Shown here in pieces: positions 1-12,928 of a stretch of 64,000 nucleotides of DNA. Location: NCBI RefSeq assembly GCF_011300875.1, contig NZ_CP049862.1:1798001-1862000 (forward strand), written 5' to 3'. The notes under the pieces are model-generated. The model ran no database searches and had not been told where the DNA came from. It saw only the letters and a program-made list of their open reading frames with translations. The translations under genes and the position numbers were made by a program. Each line of letters opens with the position of its first letter. The stretch's first letter is position 1. This DNA comes from Sanguibacter sp. HDW7. GTDB taxonomy: Bacteria > Actinomycetota > Actinomycetes > Actinomycetales > Cellulomonadaceae.

Positions 1-1417
1 TCCGGTCGCCCGACCACTCGGTGTGGAAGACGCCGCCCTTGTCGACACGCTGGTACGTGTGCGCTCCGAAGAAGTCGCGCTGCGCCTGGATGAGGTTCGC
101 GGGCAGACGCTCGGCACGCACGCCGTCGTAGTAGGCGAGCGACGACGAGAACGCGGGCGTCGGGACGCCGTTGAGCGCCGCCTGCGCGACGATCCTGCGC
201 CACGCGCCTACACCCTGGCCGACCTGCTCCGTGAAGTACGGGTCGGCGAGGAGCAGCGAGAGCTCCGGGTTGCGCTCGTAGGCCTCGGTGATGCGGTTGA
301 GGAAGCGGGCGCGGATGATGCAGCCGCCGCGCCAGATGCGCGCCATGGCGCCACGGTCGATGTTCCAGCCGAGCTCGGCCGACGCCGCGGCGATCTGGTC
401 GAAGCCCTGCGAGTACGCGACGACCTTCGACGCGAACAGCGCGAGGCGCACGTCCTCGATGAACGCGGCGCGGTCGGTGACGGCCCACGAGCCTGCCTCG
501 GCGGGCAGGACACGGCCGGCCTCGCGCTGCGGGACCGAGCCCGAGAGAGCGCGCGCGAACGTCGCCTCGGCGATGCCTGTGATCGGCACGCCCAGGTCGA
601 GGGCGTTCTGGACCGTCCAGCGGCCCGTGCCCTTCTGCTCGGCGCGGTCGAGCACGATGTCGACGAAAGCCTTGCCGGTCTCGGCGTCGACGTGCGCGAG
701 GACGTCGGCCGTGATCTCGATGAGGAACGACTCGAGGTCGCCCTTGTTCCACTCGGCGAAGATCTCGGCGATCTCGGCCGCCGAGGCACCCAGACCCTGC
801 TTGAGCAGGTCGTAGGCCTCGGCGATGAGCTGCATGTCGGCGTACTCGATGCCGTTGTGCACCATCTTGACGAAGTGGCCGGCGCCGTCCGGGCCGACGT
901 ACGTGCAGCACGGGACACCGTCGACCTTGGCCGAGATGTCCTCGAGGATCGGGCCGAGCCACTCGTAGGACTCGGGCGAGCCGCCGGGCATGATCGAGGG
1001 GCCGTTGAGTGCACCCTCCTCGCCGCCGGAGACGCCGGTGCCGACGAAGTGCAGGCCGTGGGCCTTGAGCTCGGCCTCGCGGCGACGCGTGTCGGGGAAG
1101 TGCGCGTTGCCCGCGTCGATGACGATGTCGCCCTCCTCGAGGAGGGGGACGAGCTCGGCGATGACGGCGTCCGTCGCGGCGCCCGCCTTCACCATGATGA
1201 CGACCTTGCGGGGCCGTGCGAGCGAGGCGACGAAGTCAGCCATCGACTCCGAGGCGACGAAGTCGCCGTCGTCACCGTGGTCGGCGACGAGCGAGGCCGT
1301 CTTGGCGTAGGAGCGGTTGTGCACCGCGACCGTGTAGCCGTGACGTGCGAAGTTGCGGGCAAGGTTGCGGCCCATCACCGCAAGCCCTGTGACGCCGATC
1401 TGGGCGCGTGCCGTCAT
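1..1417 (-). CDS. gnd: 6-phosphogluconate dehydrogenase, decarboxylating (last few codons outside window)
   Basis: Oxidative pentose phosphate enzyme that converts 6-phosphogluconate to ribulose-5-phosphate, CO2 and NADPH in the cytosol. The N-terminus carries the Rossmann motif GVTGLAVMGRNLA (residues 8-20), followed by NRSYAKT, whose Arg suggests NADP rather than NAD. The substrate-site motif FVKMVHNGIEY with the catalytic Lys is visible near residue 183. 472 codons lie in the window and the last ones read VFHTEWSGDR; the E. coli enzyme ends at HTEWLD, so only a few residues and the stop are missing. The ATG at 1417 is preceded by GGAGGGAG, a strong ribosome binding site. The length is that of the long bacterial Gnd class. 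The identification is secure. Confidence 0.95.
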   Translation of the reverse strand, partial: MTARAQIGVTGLAVMGRNLARNFARHGYTVAVHNRSYAKTASLVADHGDDGDFVASESMADFVASLARPRKVVIMVKAGAATDAVIAELVPLLEEGDIVIDAGNAHFPDTRRREAELKAHGLHFVGTGVSGGEEGALNGPSIMPGGSPESYEWLGPILEDISAKVDGVPCCTYVGPDGAGHFVKMVHNGIEYADMQLIAEAYDLLKQGLGASAAEIAEIFAEWNKGDLESFLIEITADVLAHVDAETGKAFVDIVLDRAEQKGTGRWTVQNALDLGVPITGIAEATFARALSGSVPQREAGRVLPAEAGSWAVTDRAAFIEDVRLALFASKVVAYSQGFDQIAAASAELGWNIDRGAMARIWRGGCIIRARFLNRITEAYERNPELSLLLADPYFTEQVGQGVGAWRRIVAQAALNGVPTPAFSSSLAYYDGVRAERLPANLIQAQRDFFGAHTYQRVDKGGVFHTEWSGDR

Positions 1418-1552
1418 CGTGTGAACTCTCCCTCCAGATGAACATGTTCCGCCTGCGAGGATATCGCGCGCCCCTCGCGGCCCGCCCCGGCGACCAGCAT
1501 GTGTCCGCCACCGTCCGCGGCGTGGCGCGCCCCGGGGCGCTTCGCCGATGCC

Positions 1553-1567
1553 TACAGTGACGCCATG
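1553..1567 (+). promoter_or_regulatory. -10 box for leaderless DUF3000 gene
   Basis: TACAGT at 1553-1558 lies 6 bases before the ATG at 1565. There is no ribosome binding site, so the mRNA probably starts at or next to the start codon. Confidence 0.55.
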
Positions 1568-2137
1568 GTCGCCACCGCGCTCACGCAGGTGCCCGCGCAG
1601 TTCGCGCAGGCGCTCACCTCGTTGCGTGCGGCCGCCCTCGACGCCGGGATCGAGGTGCGTGAGGTGCCCGCGCCGTCGCGCGCCGCCGCGTTCGCCGTGG
1701 CGCTCTCGGGCTCGCTCGCCCGCGCCGGCGCGCCCGATGACGAGGTCGCCGACGGCACCTTCGTCGTCCTCTACGACCCGCCCGTCACACCCGTCGACGA
1801 CGGCGTGTTCCGCGTCATCGTGCTCGTGCGCGCGGAGCTCGACGAGGAGATGTCGGGCGATCCCATGCTCCCCGAGGTCGCGTGGGACTGGATGCTCGAG
1901 GCCCTCGAGGCCTGCCCGGTCGAGGCGGTCGAGCCGGGCGGCTCGGTGACGCGGACCATCACGACGAGCCACGGCTCGGTCGCGGGCCGTCCCGAGGAGG
2001 TCGAGCTCGAGCTCCGTGCCTCATGGTCGTCGGTCGACCCCGCGGTCGGCGCGTTCCTCACGGCGTGGGCGCGCGTCCTGCGACTCTTCGCTGGCGTGCC
2101 GCCGCTCGGCGTGACGCTGCTCGACGACCGTCGCTGA
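1565..2137 (+). CDS. DUF3000 family protein
   Basis: A 190-residue acidic soluble protein that I recognise as the actinobacterial DUF3000 family; no function is established. It has no signal peptide or membrane segment. The family normally sits directly upstream of the RNase D/HRDC gene, as here, and in many actinobacteria this pair lies near hemE and dxs. An upstream in-frame ATG at 1499 would add 22 residues, but the -10 box at 1553-1558 lies inside that extension, so 1565 is preferred. The family call rests on sequence character and conserved position and is fairly firm. Confidence 0.75.
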   Translation: MVATALTQVPAQFAQALTSLRAAALDAGIEVREVPAPSRAAAFAVALSGSLARAGAPDDEVADGTFVVLYDPPVTPVDDGVFRVIVLVRAELDEEMSGDPMLPEVAWDWMLEALEACPVEAVEPGGSVTRTITTSHGSVAGRPEEVELELRASWSSVDPAVGAFLTAWARVLRLFAGVPPLGVTLLDDRR

Positions 2138-2208
2138 CGCTCTCGGTCCGTCCCGCACCGCCTGCTTCCCGCACCGCGTCGCTCCCGTGCCACGGAGCCG
2201 CGCGGGTC

Positions 2209-2224
2209 TAGCCTTGCCCCCATG
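2209..2224 (+). promoter_or_regulatory. -10 box for leaderless RNase D gene
   Basis: TAGCCT at 2209-2214 is followed by seven bases and the ATG at 2222. No Shine-Dalgarno sequence is present. Confidence 0.6.
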
Positions 2225-3463
2225 AGCCAGACCGCACCGTCCGCTTCCGCGGTCGAGGAACCCGACATCACCCCGCTCACAGCTCCTGCTGACGGCGTCC
2301 CCGACGTCCTCACGACCCCGGCGGGGCTCGCCCGCGCGGTCGAGGCGTTCGCGGGCGGCTCCGGCCCCGTCGCGGTCGATGCCGAGCGGGCCTCGGGCTA
2401 CCGGTACGGGCAGCAGAACTATCTCGTGCAGCTGCGTCGCGCGGGCGCGGGCACCGCGCTCGTCGACCCCGTCGCGCTCCCCGACCTCTCGGGTCTGAGC
2501 GACGCGCTCCACGGCGTCGAGTGGGTGTTCCACGCGGCGTCCCAGGACCTCCACGCGCTGAGCGAGCAGGGCCTCGTGCCGGACGCGATCTTCGACACGG
2601 AGCTCGCGGCGCGCCTCCTCGGTCTCGAGCGGGTGGGCCTCGGCGCGGTCGTCGCGGAGGTGCTCGGGCTCGGGCTCGCGAAGGAGCACTCGGCCGTCGA
2701 CTGGTCGACGCGCCCCCTGCCGGCCTCGTGGCTCACGTACGCGGCGCTCGACGTCGAGGTGCTCGTCGACCTGCGCGACGCGCTCGCCGAGAGGCTCGAG
2801 GCGCAGGGCAAGTCCGAGTGGGCCCGTCAGGAGTTCGAGGCCGTGCGGCTCGCGCCGCCGCCCGCTCCGCGCGTCGACCCGTGGCGTCGTGTGTCGGGCG
2901 TCCACTCGCTGCGATCGCGCCGCCAGCTCGGCGTCGTCCGGTCGCTGTGGGAGGCGCGCGAGGACAACGCGCGCCGGCGCGACATCTCGCCGGGCCGCGT
3001 CCTCCCCGACCGCGCGATCGTCGCGGCCGCGCAGGCGCTGCCCCGCAACGTCGGAGCGCTGACGGCGCTCCCGACGTTCGCGGGCCGCGGCACGTCGCGT
3101 CGCGCACCGATGTGGCAGTCGGCGATCGACGCGGGCCTGGCCCTGCCCGAGGCCGACCTGCCGCCGCTGCGCGGGCCCCGCACGGACGCCCCACCGCCGC
3201 CGCGCGCGTGGGCCGACCGCGAGCCCGAGGCCGCTGCGCGGCTCGACGCTGCGCGCGCGGTCGTCGTCGAGCTCTCCGAGCGCCTCGCGGTGCCCGTCGA
3301 GAACCTCCTGCAGCCGGACGCGCTGCGTCGGCTGTGCTGGACGCCGCCGCAGGTCGTCACGGAGGAGACCGTCACGGAGGCGCTCGCCGGTCGAGGTGCT
3401 CGCGCATGGCAGACCGAACTGCTCGCGGGGCCTCTCGCGGCCGCGATCGGCGCCGCCGGATAG
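2222..3463 (+). CDS. Ribonuclease D-like 3'-5' exonuclease with HRDC domain
   Basis: A 413-residue DEDDy exonuclease. The three exonuclease motifs are visible: VAVDAERASGYRYGQ near residue 55 (Exo I Asp and Glu), HAASQDLHAL near 103 (Exo II Asp), and YAALDVEVLVDL near 175 (Exo III Tyr and Asp). An HRDC nucleic-acid-binding region follows from about residue 215 to 295 (LRSLWEAREDNARRRDISPGRVLPD-type helices), with a second helical segment at the C-terminus. RNase D trims 3' ends of stable RNA precursors in E. coli; that role here is inferred. Its stop codon TAG forms part of the -10 box of the next gene. Confidence 0.88.
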   Translation: MSQTAPSASAVEEPDITPLTAPADGVPDVLTTPAGLARAVEAFAGGSGPVAVDAERASGYRYGQQNYLVQLRRAGAGTALVDPVALPDLSGLSDALHGVEWVFHAASQDLHALSEQGLVPDAIFDTELAARLLGLERVGLGAVVAEVLGLGLAKEHSAVDWSTRPLPASWLTYAALDVEVLVDLRDALAERLEAQGKSEWARQEFEAVRLAPPPAPRVDPWRRVSGVHSLRSRRQLGVVRSLWEAREDNARRRDISPGRVLPDRAIVAAAQALPRNVGALTALPTFAGRGTSRRAPMWQSAIDAGLALPEADLPPLRGPRTDAPPPPRAWADREPEAAARLDAARAVVVELSERLAVPVENLLQPDALRRLCWTPPQVVTEETVTEALAGRGARAWQTELLAGPLAAAIGAAG

Positions 3464-3475
3464 GGTTGTCGGGTG
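3461..3475 (+). promoter_or_regulatory. -10 box overlapping the RNase D stop codon
   Basis: TAGGGT at 3461-3466 lies 6 bases before the GTG at 3473. Its first three bases are the TAG stop of the RNase D gene, so promoter and stop codon share sequence. Confidence 0.6.
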
Positions 3476-4477
3476 CTGCACATCGAGACCGTCACCGACC
3501 CTGCCGAGTGGAACCGACTGGTGGACGCCGGGGGTGGTCATCCGCTCCAGCTGTGGGGCTGGGGCGAGGTCAAGGCCACGGGCGCGTGGCGTCCGCTGCG
3601 GCTGCGCGCGGTCGCCGAGGACGGGACGACGGTCGGCGGCGCGCAGGTGCTCGTGCGCCGGCTCCCGGCGCCCTTCCGCGCCTTCGCGCACGTGCCGCGC
3701 GGGCCGTTCGTCGGCTCCGACGGGGTCGGCACGGAGGCTGAGCGCTCCGCGGTCGCGCAGGCCGTCGTCGAGCACTGCCGCCGCGAGGTCAAGGGCATCG
3801 GCATCGCTCTCGAGCCCGACTGGGACGCCGGCACGAACGTCGACCTGCCCGGGTCACGCCCTGCCGCGCACACGATCCTCTACCCGAGCACGCTCGTCCT
3901 CGACCTCACGAAGACCGAGGACGAGTTGCTCGCGGCAGCCGGTCGTTCGACGCGCTACGACATCCGCAAGGCCGCACGGACGGGCCTCGACGTCCGGCGC
4001 GTCACGGACGAGGCCGAGGTGCGCGCGGTCATCGCGCTCTACCGGGTCTCGGCCGAGCACGCGGGCTTCGCGCTCCACGACGACGACTACTACCTCGCGA
4101 TCCACCGCGAGCTGGGCGAGGCCTCGCTGCTCGTCGCGGCGTTCGAGGACGGCCGACCGTGCTCGTTCGTCTGGGACGTGCTCTCGGGCTCGACGGCGTT
4201 CGAGCTCTACGGCGGCGTCGACGACGCGGGGCGCAGGCTGCGTGCCAACGCCCCCGTGAAGTGGCACGCGGTGCGGCTCGCGGCGGAGGCCGGGGCTCGT
4301 CGCTATGACATGAACGGCCTGCTCAACGACGGCATCAGCGAGTTCAAGAAGTCGTTCGCCCAGCACACGGACGAGCTCGTGGGCACGCTCGAGGTGCCGT
4401 TCGGGCCGATGTTCGACGTGTGGGACCGCGTGCTGCCGACCGCGAAGAAGGCCGTGCGCCGCCTGCGTCGCGGCTGA
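3473..4477 (+). CDS. FemA/FemB-like peptidoglycan bridge aminoacyltransferase
   Basis: A 334-residue protein of the FemABX family. These enzymes use aminoacyl-tRNA to add amino acids to the peptide stem or cross-bridge of lipid II at the inner membrane face. It shows two GNAT-like halves: an N-terminal part with HPLQLWGWGEVK near residue 23 and a C-terminal part with RSTRYDIRKAARTGL near 159 and APVKWHAVRLAAEAG near 262. The typical ending DGISEFKKSF near residue 290 is present. The C-terminus is Arg-rich. The GTG start follows a leaderless -10 box. Which residue is transferred cannot be read from the sequence. Confidence 0.82.
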   Translation: MLHIETVTDPAEWNRLVDAGGGHPLQLWGWGEVKATGAWRPLRLRAVAEDGTTVGGAQVLVRRLPAPFRAFAHVPRGPFVGSDGVGTEAERSAVAQAVVEHCRREVKGIGIALEPDWDAGTNVDLPGSRPAAHTILYPSTLVLDLTKTEDELLAAAGRSTRYDIRKAARTGLDVRRVTDEAEVRAVIALYRVSAEHAGFALHDDDYYLAIHRELGEASLLVAAFEDGRPCSFVWDVLSGSTAFELYGGVDDAGRRLRANAPVKWHAVRLAAEAGARRYDMNGLLNDGISEFKKSFAQHTDELVGTLEVPFGPMFDVWDRVLPTAKKAVRRLRRG

Positions 4478-4525
4478 TCCGAGGCCTGTCGCGGGACCTC
4501 GGTCCCTCCGCTTGCGCTTTTTACT

Positions 4526-4540
4526 GATACCCGCGGTATC
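4526..4540. promoter_or_regulatory. Palindromic operator candidate upstream of fadA
   Basis: GATACC-CGC-GGTATC is a perfect 6-bp inverted repeat with a 3-base spacer. It overlaps a plausible -10 (TATCGT, 4537-4542) that sits 19 bases after TTGCGC (4512-4517), so a bound repressor would block transcription. The size suits a TetR- or LacI-type regulator. No regulator gene lies next to it. Confidence 0.5.
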
Positions 4541-4595
4541 GTGTACCTGAACGAGCGAACAGCTCCGGACACCGTCGTCCAGATCAGGAGAAGCC

Positions 4596-5852
4596 ATGCC
4601 CGTGGCCCAGCCCGCACGTCGCGCACTGCGCGACGTCGTCTTCGTCGAGGGGGTGCGCTCCCCGTTCGGCAAGGCGCGTCCCGACGGCCTCTACGCCGAG
4701 ACCCGCGCCGACGACCTAGCCGTCGCCGTCCTGCGCGGCCTCCTCGACCGCGTCCCGAACCTCCCCCACGACCGCATCGACGAGGTCGCGATCGCCGCGA
4801 CGACCCAGCGCGGCGACCAGGGCCTCACCCTCGGCCGCTCCGTCGCCGTCCTCGCAGGACTGCTCCGCACCGTCCCCGGCTTCGCGATCGACCGCATGTG
4901 CGCAGGAGCCATGACCGCCGTGACGACGACCGCGTCGGCGATCGCCACGGGCATGCAGGACGTGACGATCGCCGGAGGCGTCGAGCACATGGGCCACCAC
5001 CCCATGGGCTTCGACGCCGACCCCAACCCTCGCTTCGTCGCCGACCGGCTCGTCGCGGGCGACGCGCTCGTCATGGGCGCGACCGCCGAGACGCTCCACG
5101 ACCGGCTCCCCCACCTCACGAAGGAGCGCGCCGACGCGTACGGCGCCGAGTCGCAGCGCCGCTACGCCGCCGCGCTCGCCGCAGGACGCGTCGAGCCCGA
5201 CCTCGTCCCGGTCGCGATCCGCTCCGCCGAGCTCGGCTGGGGCCTCGCGACCGCCGACGAGCTCCCGCGCCCCGGCACGACCGTCGAGGGCATGCGCGAC
5301 CTCAAGACCCCGTTCCGCCCCGGAGGCCGCGTCACCGCGGGCAACGCCTCGCCCCTCACCGACGGCTCGACGATGTGCCTGCTCGCGTCGGGCGAGACCG
5401 CCGCCGAGCTCGACCTGCCCGTCCGCATGCGCCTCGTGTCGTTCGCGTACGCGGGCGTCGACCCCGAGGTCATGGGGCTGGGCCCCATCCCCGCGACGGA
5501 GCGCGCCCTGCGCAGCGCCGGCCTGACGATCGACGACATCGGCCTCGTCGAGATCAACGAGGCGTTCGCGATCCAGGTCCTCGCGTTCACCGACCACTTC
5601 GGGCTCGCCGACGACGACGTGCGGGTCAACCCCGACGGCGGCGCGATCGCCGTCGGGCACCCGCTGGCGTCCTCGGGCGTACGCCTCATGACGCAGCTCG
5701 CCCGCCACTTCGAGTCGCACCCGGAGGTCCGCTACGGCCTCACGACGATGTGCGTCGGGCTCGGCATGGGCGGCACCGTGGTCTGGGAGAACCCGCACCA
5801 CGCCGACTACTCGGGCCACGTGCCCGCCGCGACCGAGGGGACCGACCGATGA
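4596..5852 (+). CDS. fadA: Acetyl-CoA C-acyltransferase (3-ketoacyl-CoA thiolase)
   Basis: A 418-residue thiolase that would cleave 3-ketoacyl-CoA to acetyl-CoA and a shortened acyl-CoA in the last step of beta-oxidation. The nucleophile lies in DRMCAGAM (C102). The downstream motifs are VEINEAFAIQV, GGAIAVGHPLASSG with the catalytic His, and the second catalytic Cys in TTMCVGLGMGGT. AGGAGA precedes the ATG at good spacing. It overlaps fadB by four bases (ATGA), so the two are co-translated as the alpha/beta parts of a fatty acid oxidation complex. The palindrome at 4526-4540 probably regulates both. Confidence 0.92.
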   Translation: MPVAQPARRALRDVVFVEGVRSPFGKARPDGLYAETRADDLAVAVLRGLLDRVPNLPHDRIDEVAIAATTQRGDQGLTLGRSVAVLAGLLRTVPGFAIDRMCAGAMTAVTTTASAIATGMQDVTIAGGVEHMGHHPMGFDADPNPRFVADRLVAGDALVMGATAETLHDRLPHLTKERADAYGAESQRRYAAALAAGRVEPDLVPVAIRSAELGWGLATADELPRPGTTVEGMRDLKTPFRPGGRVTAGNASPLTDGSTMCLLASGETAAELDLPVRMRLVSFAYAGVDPEVMGLGPIPATERALRSAGLTIDDIGLVEINEAFAIQVLAFTDHFGLADDDVRVNPDGGAIAVGHPLASSGVRLMTQLARHFESHPEVRYGLTTMCVGLGMGGTVVWENPHHADYSGHVPAATEGTDR

Positions 5853-9489: not shown

Positions 9490-9522
9490 GAGAGCCCCGC
9501 ACCTGGACGGTGCGGGGCTCTC
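9490..9522. terminator. Hairpin between convergent sseC and pflA
   Basis: Arms of 14 bp (GAGAGCCCCGCACC and its complement) surround a 5-base loop, 39 bases beyond the pflA stop. It can fold from either strand and probably ends both transcripts. Confidence 0.65.
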
Positions 9523-9561: not shown

Positions 9562-10446
9562 TCAGTAGACGGTGAGGCCCTTGGCGCGGAACTGCTCGCG
9601 CACGCGGTCGACCTCGGCGTTCGACGGCGGCTGGGTGTCGCCGAGCTCATAGGGCATGCCGAGGCTGTCCCACTTGTCCTTGCCCATCTGGTGGAAGGGC
9701 AGGACCTCGACGCGCGTGACCGTCGGGAGCGTCGCGGCGTACTCGGCGACCTTCTCGACGTTCTCCGGGTCGTCCGTGAGGCCGGGGACGAGGACGAAAC
9801 GCAGCCAGACCTCCGTGCCGGACTCGGCGAGCCGGCGACCGAACTTCAGCGTCGGCTCGAGCGCGCGACCCGTGACCTTCTTGTACGTCTCCGGGTCGCC
9901 CGACTTCACGTCGAGGAGCACGAGGTCGACGTCCGCGAGCATCTCGTCGGTGCACGCAGCACCGAGGTAGCCCGAGGTGTCGATGGCGGTGTGGATGCCC
10001 ATCTCCTTGGCGCCCCGCAGGAGCGTCGCCGCGAAGGCGGGCTGCATGAGCACCTCGCCGCCCGAGAGCGTGATGCCACCCCCGGAGTTCGCGAAGATGC
10101 GACGGTAGCGCTTGATGCGACGCAGCAGCTCGGTGGCCTCGACGGGCTCGCCGTTGCGCATCGCCATCGTGTCGGGGTTGTGGCAGTACAGGCAGCGCAG
10201 CGGGCAGCCCGAGAGGAAGATCGTCATGCGGGTGCCCGGGCCGTCGACGGCCGTGACGAGCTCCCAGGAGTGGACCGAGCCGAGGAGTCCGGAGCGCATC
10301 TGCGCGAACTTCTCCGAGCGGTCCGCGTCGCTCAGCTCGAGGCCGACGAGGCCCGCTCCCGCGGCGCGGCCGACGGGCGCCTCGAAGCCCTGGTCGCCGC
10401 TCGCGCCGTCAGCCACCGCCGCCTGGGGCGTCTCCAGGATCGTCAT
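9562..10446 (-). CDS. pflA: Pyruvate formate-lyase activating enzyme (radical SAM)
   Basis: A 294-residue radical SAM enzyme that installs the glycyl radical on pyruvate formate-lyase under anaerobic conditions. The [4Fe-4S] motif CPLRCLYC (C81, C85, C88) is followed by HNPDT, then by GGGITLSGGEVLMQP (SAM-binding GGE) and TSGYLG. Compared with the 246-residue E. coli enzyme it has about 50 extra N-terminal residues rich in Gly and Ala before the conserved GSVHSWELVTAVDGPGTR. It is third in the operon after the split lyase genes. Its target is most likely the 82-residue glycyl-radical subunit, which is unusual because that subunit is a free protein. Confidence 0.93.
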   Translation of the reverse strand: MTILETPQAAVADGASGDQGFEAPVGRAAGAGLVGLELSDADRSEKFAQMRSGLLGSVHSWELVTAVDGPGTRMTIFLSGCPLRCLYCHNPDTMAMRNGEPVEATELLRRIKRYRRIFANSGGGITLSGGEVLMQPAFAATLLRGAKEMGIHTAIDTSGYLGAACTDEMLADVDLVLLDVKSGDPETYKKVTGRALEPTLKFGRRLAESGTEVWLRFVLVPGLTDDPENVEKVAEYAATLPTVTRVEVLPFHQMGKDKWDSLGMPYELGDTQPPSNAEVDRVREQFRAKGLTVY

Positions 10447-10539
10447 GTCGTCGGTCCTTCCTCGTGGTGCGCTGCCGGGTGCGGGTGATGCGTGCTGAGC
10501 GGGGCGGGGACCCGGTCCGGGCCCCCGCCCCCTAGTGTC

Positions 10540-10788
10540 TCAGGCGCTGTGGTGGAACGTGCGCGAGAGGACGTCGAGCTGCTGCTCGCGGGTGAGCTTG
10601 ACGAAGTTCACCGCGTAGCCCGAGACGCGGACCGTGAGCTGCGGGTACTTCTCGGGGTGCTCCATCGCGTCCTCGAGCGTCTCCTTGTTGAGGACGTTGA
10701 TGTTCGCGTGGTAGAGCCCCTTGACCCCACCGTTGGCGTCACGGGCGGCCTTCATGTCAGCGAGGCGCTCGTCGTAGGTCTTGGCCAT
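10540..10788 (-). CDS. Free-standing glycyl-radical subunit of pyruvate formate-lyase (GrcA-like)
   Basis: An 82-residue protein equal to the C-terminal glycyl-radical domain of PflB. The stretch [15 protein letters not shown] is followed by the radical loop RVSGYAVNF with G57 as the radical glycine and by the usual ending [15 protein letters not shown]. The first about 23 residues ([13 protein letters not shown]...) do not resemble PFL and form a charged leader. It has its own ATG and ribosome binding site (GGAAAGGGA). It resembles E. coli GrcA/YfiD, which repairs oxygen-cut PFL. Here the neighbouring pflB lacks this domain altogether, so this protein is probably an obligate subunit rather than a spare part. 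Confidence 0.88.
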
Positions 10789-10822
10789 GATGATTCCCTT
10801 TCCTGCGTATCCGTTGGTGGGG

Positions 10823-12928
10823 TCAGTCCTGCGGGACGAAGCCCGAGTCGAGGATGCCGACGAGGTTGCCGACCTGCTCCTCCTTGGTGCGACCGAGGCC
10901 GGCCGGGGTGATCGTGTTCGTCAGCGAGATGCCGTCGAGCGCGTCGTTGTAGTCGAGCTTGCCGACGGACATCATCGAGGCGACCATGCCGTGCGTGTCG
11001 GCGCCGTTCTCCGGGTTCGCGCCCGGCGCGAACGGCGTGCCGGCCTCGTGGCCCGAGGGGAACGAGCCGGTGGCCTTGCCGTAGACGACGTTCGACGTGA
11101 TCGTGAGGACCGACTGCGTCGGGATCGCGTCGCGGTACATCGGCATGGCCTTGATCTTCGCCATGACCGTGTGGACGATCGTCGCCGCGATGTCGTCGGC
11201 CTTGTCGTCGTCGTTGCCGTACGTCGGGAAGTCACCCTCGGTGACGTAGTCGACGATGAGGCCGGTCTCGTCGCGGACGGGCGTGACCTTGGCGAACTTG
11301 ATGGCTGCGAGCGAGTCCGCGACGATCGAGAGGCCGGCGATGCCGCAGCCCATCGTCCGCACGATGTCCGAGTCGTGCAGGGCCATCTCCATGGCCTCGT
11401 ACGCGTACTTGTCGTGGCTGTAGTGGATGATGTTGAGCGCCTCGACGTACGTCCCGACGACCCAGTCGAGCATGGCCTCGTAGCGGTTCCAGACGTCGTC
11501 GAACTCGAGCGGGCCGTCACCCTGGACGGGCTCGTAGCCGGCGACGATCTGCTTGCCGGAGACCTCGTCGCGACCACCGTTCATCGCGTAGAGGAGCGCC
11601 TTGGCGGCGTTGACGCGCGCTCCGAAGAACTGCATCTGCTTGCCGACCTGCATCGGGGAGACGCAGCACGCGATGGCCGCGTCGTCGCCCCAGCGCTCAC
11701 GGATCTGCTCGTCGGACTCGTACTGGATCGCGCTCGTCTCGATCGAGATCGCGGCGCAGAACTCCTTGTACCCGTCGGGCAGGGTCTCGTCCCAGAAGAT
11801 CGTGATGTTCGGCTCGGGGGCCGGGCCGAGGTTCCGCAGCGTCTGCAGCAGGCGGAACGACGTCTTCGTCACGAGGGTGCGGCCGTCCTCGCCGAGGCCG
11901 CCGTCGGACCACGTGGCCCAGTAGGGGTCGCCCGAGAAGATCTGGTCGTAGTCGATCGTGCGGAGGAAGCGCACGATGCGGAGCTTGATGACGAGGGCGT
12001 CGATCATCTCCTGCGCGTCGGACTCGGTGATCGTGCCCTCGGCGAGGTCACGCTCGACGTACGCGTCGAAGAAGCCGGAGAGGCGACCGATCGACATCGC
12101 GGCGCCGTCCTGCGACTTCACCGAGGCGAGGTAGCCGAAGTACGTCCACTGGACGGCCTCGAGCGCGGTGGCGGCGGGGCGACCGAGGTCGAAGCCGTAC
12201 TGCGTGCCGAGGTTCTTGAGCTTCTTGAGCGCCTTGACCTGCTCGGAGTGCTCCTCGCGGTAGCGCGCCCAGTGCTCGGAGAACGGCTGGTCGGTGACCG
12301 CGTCCTTGTCCTTGAGCTTCTCCGCGATGAGGAAGTCGACGCCGTAGAGCGCGACGCGGCGGTAGTCGCCGATGATGCGGCCGCGGCCGTAGGCGTCGGG
12401 CAGGCCCGTGATGATGTGCGACGAGCGCGCGGCGCGGATGCGGGGGGTGTAGATGTCGAAGACCCCGTCGTTGTGGGTCTTGCGGTACTTCGTGAAGATC
12501 TCCTTGACGGCGAGGTTCGGCTCCTTGCCGGCCTCACGGATCGCGGTCTCGACCATGCGCCAGCCGCCCGAGGGCATCATCGCGCGCTTGAGCGGCGTGT
12601 CGGTCTGCAGGCCCACGATGACGTCGTCGTCGGAGCTGATGTAGCCCGCGGGGAACGCATCGATGTCCGCGGGGGTGTCGGTGTCGACGTCGTAGACCCG
12701 GCGCTCGCGCTCGACGGAGAGGAACTCCTTCTCGAGCGTCTCCCAGACGCGCAGGGTCTTGGCCGTGGGGCCTGCGAGGAAGGACGCGTCGCCCTCGAAG
12801 GGCGTGTAGTTCCGCAGGATGAAGTCACGCAGGTCGACGGACTCGGTCCACGGACCGGTCTCGAACCCGCGCCAGGGGTCAGGGGTCGCCGCACCGTCGA
12901 TGGTGGGGCTGGTCTCCGTCGTCGTCAT
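10823..12928 (-). CDS. pflB: Pyruvate formate-lyase large subunit lacking the glycyl-radical domain
   Basis: A 701-residue formate C-acetyltransferase that converts pyruvate and CoA to acetyl-CoA and formate in anaerobic fermentation. The catalytic cysteine pair is in AIACCVSPM (C421-C422, matching E. coli C418-C419), and the pyruvate-pocket regions are intact. The protein stops at [14 protein letters not shown], just where the E. coli 760-residue enzyme continues into its glycyl-radical domain. That domain is encoded by the next gene after a 34-base spacer, in a different frame. The ATG at 12928 is preceded by CTGGAGA; an upstream in-frame start at 13030 would run through the promoter region. 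It leads the operon pflB-grcA-like-pflA. Confidence 0.92.

What the first reader, a model, noticed from the sequence alone, without database searches (positions are those of the whole stretch)
9562..12928. Naturally split pyruvate formate-lyase with an obligate free glycyl-radical subunit
Seen: pflB stops at 701 residues with its C421-C422 pair intact but no glycyl-radical domain. After a 34-base spacer with its own ribosome binding site, an 82-residue protein carries RVSGYAVNF (G57) and the PFL C-terminal helices, and pflA follows. Known: E. coli PflB carries both parts on one chain, and GrcA/YfiD only repairs chains cut by oxygen. Inference: here the radical domain is always a replaceable subunit, so oxygen damage could be repaired by swapping an 82-residue piece. 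That would suit an organism moving between air and anoxia. I know no description of such a lyase as the sole form, though it may be widespread in Micrococcales annotations.
Basis: partly seen in the sequence, partly recalled or inferred. Interest (0 to 1): 0.88.

Follow-up and report, generated by a model that had tools for sequence, protein, structure and literature searches.

The report
Natural two-chain pyruvate formate-lyase
In this bacterium, and in relatives such as Actinomyces and Corynebacterium, a key fermentation enzyme is encoded as two separate proteins, with its oxygen-sensitive radical site on the small one, which public databases label as an autonomous cofactor.

Summary
pflB stops before the glycyl-radical motif; a separate 82-residue gene with its own Shine-Dalgarno-like site carries it; pflA follows. 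It is no sequencing error: 69 of 70 loci read show two chains cut at the same seam, in Schaalia, Trueperella, Actinomyces, Rothia, Corynebacterium, Dermabacter, Brachybacterium and others; one locus has them fused in frame. It is the only pyruvate formate-lyase in this complete genome. Apart from that fused case, no genome over the GrcA2 cut-off in four surveys also gave a full-length-PFL match. Within one genus the same locus is split in one species and full-length in two.

The seam falls at E. coli residues 693-697. Andorfer 2021 cut there artificially (after 695): the enzyme turned over normally but was activated poorly. The natural small chain adds a conserved N-terminal element that I read as a docking helix. 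A second split, one helix earlier, occurs in a Bacillota-phylum genome.

NCBI already names the small proteins GrcA2 and GrcA3. The data make them obligate subunits; repair by swapping is plausible, untested. I found no printed description; two PDB chains look related.

The parts
10823..12928 (-). pflB core: large chain, 701 aa plus stop, catalytic C421-C422, no glycyl-radical motif; last residues ..[14 protein letters not shown]
   Evidence: TIGR01255 976 bits over profile positions 2-680 of 744
10789..10822 (-). 34-base spacer with Shine-Dalgarno-like AGGAAAGGGA
   Evidence: spacer frame is unconstrained over 67 loci
10540..10788 (-). radical subunit (GrcA2-type), 82 aa plus stop, RVSGYAVNF with G57
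   Evidence: NF008341 168 bits, cut-off 145
10726..10788 (-). N-terminal element of the small chain (residues 1-21, [21 protein letters not shown]), not seen in the full-length PFLs printed; proposed docking helix
   Evidence: helix and docking role are inference
9562..10446 (-). pflA, radical-SAM activating enzyme, 294 aa plus stop
   Evidence: TIGR02493 309 bits, cut-off 232
9491..9521 (.). hairpin with 13-base arms and 5-base loop beyond pflA, no T tract; possible end of the operon
   Evidence: read by eye; not reported by the terminator scan

Best explanation
This operon encodes an obligate two-chain pyruvate formate-lyase, probably alpha2beta2. The large chain holds the barrel except its last strand, and the catalytic cysteine pair. 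The small chain supplies that last strand, the radical loop and the C-terminal helix. It docks from birth through an added N-terminal helix, PflA puts the radical on its G57 while it is bound, and the radical passes to C422 for each turnover. The layout (two chains, sole form, conserved seam) is shown by sequence. Assembly, activation and catalysis are inferred from E. coli work on the same cut. Repair by exchanging the small chain after oxygen cleavage is a further inference.
For: Two chains in 69 of 70 loci read, with no 300-base probe of the second set found in the first set or in another locus of the second. A loose SD pattern precedes the small gene in all 30 loci of the first set. Purifying selection on the small gene. 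Sole PFL here. In 27 further split genomes Gly_radical finds only the two split parts in 21; G417, G453, G478, G397 and G405 have a third match but a single PF02901 match each; G472 has a second free GrcA. Genomes over the GrcA2 cut-off show no separate full-length-PFL match. The large chain keeps the residues aligned to E. coli C418, C419, R176, W333, F432 and R435, invariant in 43 aligned rows (roles of the last four recalled); the small chain keeps the glycine (20 of 20). E. coli tPFL(1-695):truncYfiD, the same cut, works: apparent kcat 204 per s, radical 2.7 uM against 15.9 uM for cPFL:YfiD. A. naeslundii, a split-PFL species (L099), was reported to secrete formate (that strain's genome was not checked).
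Against: No biochemistry on any split PFL was found. In E. coli, YfiD binding to tPFL was not detectable and truncYfiD binding to cPFL too weak to measure, and tPFL:truncYfiD was activated about 6-fold less than cPFL:YfiD, so an evolved docking solution must exist and is not shown. The duplicated-helix reading is only suggestive: the expected place ties for best of 684 windows. One of 70 loci (L207) has the chains in one frame. L095 and L109 have a large ORF broken upstream of the seam. In L182 the SD pattern abuts the start codon. The formate reported for A. naeslundii was low.
Confidence: 0.83

Rival explanations
1. Sequencing error or decaying pseudogene: the gene is really, or was recently, full length.
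For: Single stop and frame change near the 3' end; most PFLs of the family appear full length.
Against: Same seam in 69 of 70 loci from many genera; a conserved new N-terminus and SD pattern on the small gene; no nonsynonymous change in the small gene against G417; spacer frames 25/24/18 of 67, so no single lost frame.
Confidence: 0.01
2. Programmed frameshift or stop read-through makes a full-length chain in the cell, and the small gene is an extra.
For: One locus (L207) has the two parts in one open frame with the spacer as linker.
Against: Spacers run from -4 to 219 bases in all three frames over 67 loci; a loose SD pattern precedes the small gene in all 30 loci of the first set, and in L207 AAAGGA is kept.
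Confidence: 0.03
3. Two independent functions: the truncated PflB is inactive or altered, and GrcA2 serves another glycyl radical enzyme such as NrdD or acts in stress.
For: NrdD is present in the genome; NCBI calls the small protein an autonomous cofactor.
Against: An activase ORF on the same strand next to the pair in all 40 loci of the second set; active-site residues kept in both chains; 21 of 27 further split genomes show no Gly_radical match other than the split parts, so no other such enzyme was found for it to serve.
Confidence: 0.05
4. Two-chain PFL in which splitting is neutral drift (constructive neutral evolution) with no repair benefit. This is a rival to the repair reading, not to the two-chain enzyme.
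For: Split and full-length forms occupy the same locus within genera; the trees need 3 and 5 changes.
Against: Retention: all 66 matching genomes of the Corynebacterium-type genus pass the GrcA2 cut-off (20 loci read, one of them fused), and 96 genomes of the A. naeslundii family (20 read); a second case in another phylum.
Confidence: 0.35

Closest known systems
Full-length PflB (TIGR01255), E. coli PFL
   Same: Same active-site residues, same order of parts
   Different: One chain; here the large chain aligns only to E. coli 693 and scores 976 bits against a cut-off of 994
GrcA/YfiD of E. coli (TIGR04365, PDB 6owr) with oxygen-cleaved PFL
   Same: Free radical domain acting in trans on C419, activated by PflA when bound
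   Different: YfiD is a spare for an enzyme that has its own domain, and has a longer, different N-terminus; here nothing else carries the PFL radical (91 bits, cut-off 170)
Artificial tPFL:truncYfiD (Andorfer 2021)
   Same: Cut at residue 695, inside the natural seam 693-697; active once activated
   Different: Poorly activated; no counterpart of the natural small chain's N-terminal element
NCBIfam GrcA2 (NF008341) and GrcA3 (NF038360)
   Same: The small proteins of the window and of the G1081 split PFL pass these cut-offs
   Different: Named autonomous cofactors; the genomes show them as the only radical-bearing part of the PFL
PDB 38la and 38lb, 'Formate acetyltransferase'
   Same: Best PDB matches of the G1081 large chain; not among the matches of either small chain, so no radical domain detected
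   Different: Origin, date and purpose not shown by the tool; no paper found

Membership tests
Pyruvate formate-lyase (TIGR01255) | Cys-Cys pair and pyruvate-site residues | tested here: met
   C421-C422, R184, W337, F435, R438 align to E. coli 418-419, 176, 333, 432, 435; roles of the last four recalled
Pyruvate formate-lyase (TIGR01255) | Curated score of a complete single chain | tested here: not met
   976.1 bits against 994.2 for the large chain; the missing part matches the small chain
Pyruvate formate-lyase (TIGR01255) | Activity: pyruvate + CoA to acetyl-CoA + formate | not testable with these tools
   needs purified chains and PflA
GrcA2 (NF008341) | Curated score | tested here: met
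   168 bits, cut-off 145
GrcA (TIGR04365, YfiD type) | Curated score | tested here: not met
   91 bits, cut-off 170
Autonomous (spare-part) cofactor | Coexists with a PFL that has its own radical domain | tested here: not met
   no such PFL in this genome nor as a separate match in the over-cut-off genomes; in G680 the two parts themselves are fused
Autonomous (spare-part) cofactor | Glycyl radical installed in trans on the small protein | not testable with these tools
   needs EPR

The most novel reading that the evidence does not exclude
GrcA2 and GrcA3 are not spare parts but the obligate radical subunits of PFLs that were split at least twice (Actinomycetota and a Bacillota-phylum genome) at nearly the same seam, each time giving the small chain a helix that docks it; oxygen damage is then cleared by exchanging an ~80-residue subunit while the 700-residue core is kept.
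Probability: 0.35. Interest if true: 0.75.

Novelty: new variant of a known kind. Interest (0 to 1): 0.62.

Why it matters
PFL is a central enzyme of fermentation, and its loss to oxygen is a textbook weakness. If these bacteria keep the vulnerable radical on a cheap separate subunit, then a protein annotated as accessory in Corynebacterium, Actinomyces, Schaalia and Rothia is half of their PFL, and metabolic models that count pflB alone are incomplete. It also offers a natural answer to the open point of the E. coli work: what makes a radical domain dock well when it is not covalently attached.

Tried and rejected
Frameshift or pseudogene: rejected by comparison. Hidden full-length PFL elsewhere: none found. 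Known redox operators upstream of pflB in 28 loci: no Rex or FNR site; two GlxR-like sites with one mismatch (L113, L179) against 0.2 expected from shuffles, not followed. Promoter and terminator scan: nothing. Group-specific residues: split rows differ from the full-length rows compared at S520, A582, T583, H586, I602 and at the junction F697; not every row agrees (L179 and L182 depart at 520 and 602, L175, L180 and L181 at others), and the clustering at 582-602 is a lead for the docking face, not tested for significance. Number of splits: undecided. needs 3 changes, needs 5, and one clade of split rows is not rejected (AU p 0.161). The shared N-terminal element argues for one origin of the small gene, so the nested full-length enzymes may be re-fusions. 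Duplicate-helix idea: 1 of 2000 column shuffles reached the score, but position 155 of the large chain ties with the expected 680 among 684 windows, so it stays suggestive. Literature: searches gave no description of a natural split PFL; the library holds open-licence papers only.

Rows dropped: L095, L105, L109, L144, L154 (partial or broken large part) before the alignment for the trees, leaving 121 rows, of which I chose 77 for; L095 and L109 before the spacer count, and L207 as fused. Of the over-cut-off hits (66; 96) I fetched 20 each, picked by eye down the lists. The notebook gives 234 bases for the G1081 gap; recounted to the ATG it is 243. The tools' 'open_frame_aa' seemed to read through stops between neighbouring matches in one frame (G1081: 851 against a 688-aa ORF), so I relied on my own ORF calls where loci were read.

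Full report
Observation. On the minus strand the window holds pflB (12928..10823, 701 aa), a 34-base spacer, an 82-aa gene (10788..10540) and pflA (10446..9562). The large chain matches PF02901 and, of PF01228, only positions 1-65 of 106; the small chain carries the rest. C421-C422 and G57 align to C418-C419 and G734 of E. coli PFL. The large chain aligns up to E. coli F693 and the small chain from E. coli 697 on, so the break falls between them.

Sole form. The genome is a single contig, 99.99% complete. It has one PFL-like match and three Gly_radical matches: the two split parts and one that is NrdD (NF006732, 1078 bits). In 27 further split genomes, Gly_radical finds only the two split parts in 21, a third match in G417, G453, G478, G397 and G405 (whose single PF02901 match is the split large chain; I did not identify the third match by a separate search), and a second free GrcA in G472.

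Distribution. PF02901 is in 46 of 394 sampled genomes of the class; 3 of these 46 pass the GrcA2 cut-off. In the window's family 118 of 150 have PF02901 and 8 of 150 pass GrcA2. In the genus of G376, which falls among Corynebacterium in the tree, 66 of 151 match and all 66 pass. In the family of the A. naeslundii genome 134 of 151 match and 96 pass. Second matches in passing genomes are G472's free GrcA and seven weak ones of 42-51 bits in frames of 847-926 aa; none is of the full-length-PFL type, which gave about 104-137 bits (one partial, G336, 54). One passing genome, G680, has its two parts fused in frame. So the full-length form is the rule in the window's own family and the split form in those two groups. 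I read 40 of the 162 loci behind.

Anatomy over loci. Thirty loci in a first set (window, L094-L113, L174-L182) and 39 of 40 in a second show a large ORF ending just after NLVG.LDAGF or its like plus a short, often acidic tail, then a small gene, mostly M..KT[YF].ERLA.MKA.R.....GLYHANINV. All 40 of the second set have an activase ORF next on the same strand. Exceptions: L095 and L109 have a large ORF broken upstream, though the seam itself is there; L105 is cut by the contig end; L207 has both parts in one frame with the spacer as linker. The two sets share no 300-base probe. Spacers run from -4 to 219 bases in all three frames (25/24/18 of 67). A loose SD pattern precedes the small gene in all 30 loci of the first set, although in L182 it abuts the start codon. 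Against G417 the small gene has 7 synonymous and 0 nonsynonymous differences. R8 and M12 of the small N-terminus are invariant in 20 of 20 aligned sequences. The nested full-length relatives read straight through (for example ..[20 protein letters not shown]..) without this element.

Evolution. The 27 split rows that entered the tree fall with 9 full-length rows (Micropruina, a Propionibacteriaceae genome, Cellulomonas citrea, Sanguibacter and relatives, G421 and G438) in a group supported at 96, next to Bifidobacteriaceae; the deeper order is unresolved. A single clade of split rows is not rejected (p 0.161). In genus g142 (G421 shares contig length and small-gene sequence with the Rarobacter faecitabidus locus L162, so I take it as Rarobacter) the same locus, with matching genes on both sides, is split in G397 and full-length in G421 and G438. 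In the window's own genus, G437 has at the same locus, next to dxs, a full-length PFL of another clade, 65% identical. Silvimonas (L165) shows a possible intermediate: full-length pflB, then a free radical domain of about 60 residues, then pflA.

A second split. In 299 genomes of the phylum of L172 (Bacillota), 91 have TIGR01255 matches at 1e-100 or better (93 in all). Ninety run to position 740 or beyond without a stop. G886 and G1057 are incomplete and were not followed. G1081 ends at 668: its large ORF ends ..GALGKEDQVFAGDLEVDLSK, a separate gene begins MASTQQIDNLVGMLDGYVEKGGYHLNVNV 243 bases after the stop, and pflA follows. Its small protein passes the GrcA3 cut-off (160.8 against 158). 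Here the helix before the radical strand lies on the small chain; in the actinobacterial form the large chain keeps it and the small chain has a helix-like element of similar pattern. Both small chains therefore begin with a probable helix. PDB chains 38lb and 38la are the nearest to the G1081 large chain and are not among the matches of the G1081 or the window small chain, so no radical domain is detected in them; 38la ends at ..LGKED.

Mechanism. Andorfer et al. 2021 (PMC8683613; outline, passages and section 5 seen) cut E. coli PFL at 695 and paired it with YfiD 61-127. The pair turned over at about 204 per s but was activated to 2.7 uM radical against 15.9 uM for cPFL:YfiD; YfiD binding to the truncated PFL was not detectable. 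So a two-chain enzyme with this seam can work, and what it lacks is affinity. I infer that the added small-chain element supplies it, possibly with the large-chain residues that separate split from full-length rows (A582, T583, H586, I602). PflA would then act on the bound small chain as in E. coli. Actinomyces naeslundii, a split-PFL species (L099; its genome has no other Gly_radical match), was reported to secrete formate, at low level, which the authors took as confirming the PFL route (PMC6493303, passages). Swapping the small chain after oxygen damage would follow naturally, but no result here bears on it directly.

What is known and new. NCBI names the small proteins GrcA2 and GrcA3. My ten paper searches found no description of a naturally split PFL as sole form. 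Of the papers listed I saw passages only of PMC6493303, PMC12338860, PMC12288474, PMC6325248, PMC13252398 and PMC11528403, and more only of PMC8683613. The library is open-licence only, and the two PDB chains suggest that others may be at work on it. I rate it a new variant of a known kind.

Noticed in passing
L207 (G680), Corynebacterium-type locus: The large-chain stop is a sense codon and the spacer is open, so both chains lie in one 827-aa frame, with the SD-like AAAGGA kept: a natural fusion with the small N-terminus inside.
   Followed up: partly
L234 (G1081), 575-3993: Second split PFL in a Bacillota-phylum genome, one helix earlier, with a GrcA3-type small chain and pflA.
   Followed up: partly
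L165 (Silvimonas terrae), 2787-5445: Full-length pflB followed directly by a short free radical domain (about 60 residues) and pflA: a possible intermediate before loss of the domain from pflB.
   Followed up: partly
L190 (G472) and L191, L192 (G421, G438): Extra free GrcA-like genes with other N-termini away from the pfl operon; G472 has one beside a split PFL, G421 and G438 beside full-length PFLs. L193 (G454) has one in a genome with no PF02901 match found (81% complete).
   Followed up: no
PDB 38la, 38lb: PFL chains without a detected radical domain; 38lb goes on with a stretch that aligns to the tail of the G1081 large chain.
   Followed up: partly
window 9491-9521: Perfect 13-base hairpin with 5-base loop between pflA and the convergent gene, without T tract.
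   Followed up: no
window 10823-12928 against L188 (G437): Within the genus, split and full-length PFLs of different clades occupy the same locus beside dxs, a case of gene displacement in place.
   Followed up: partly
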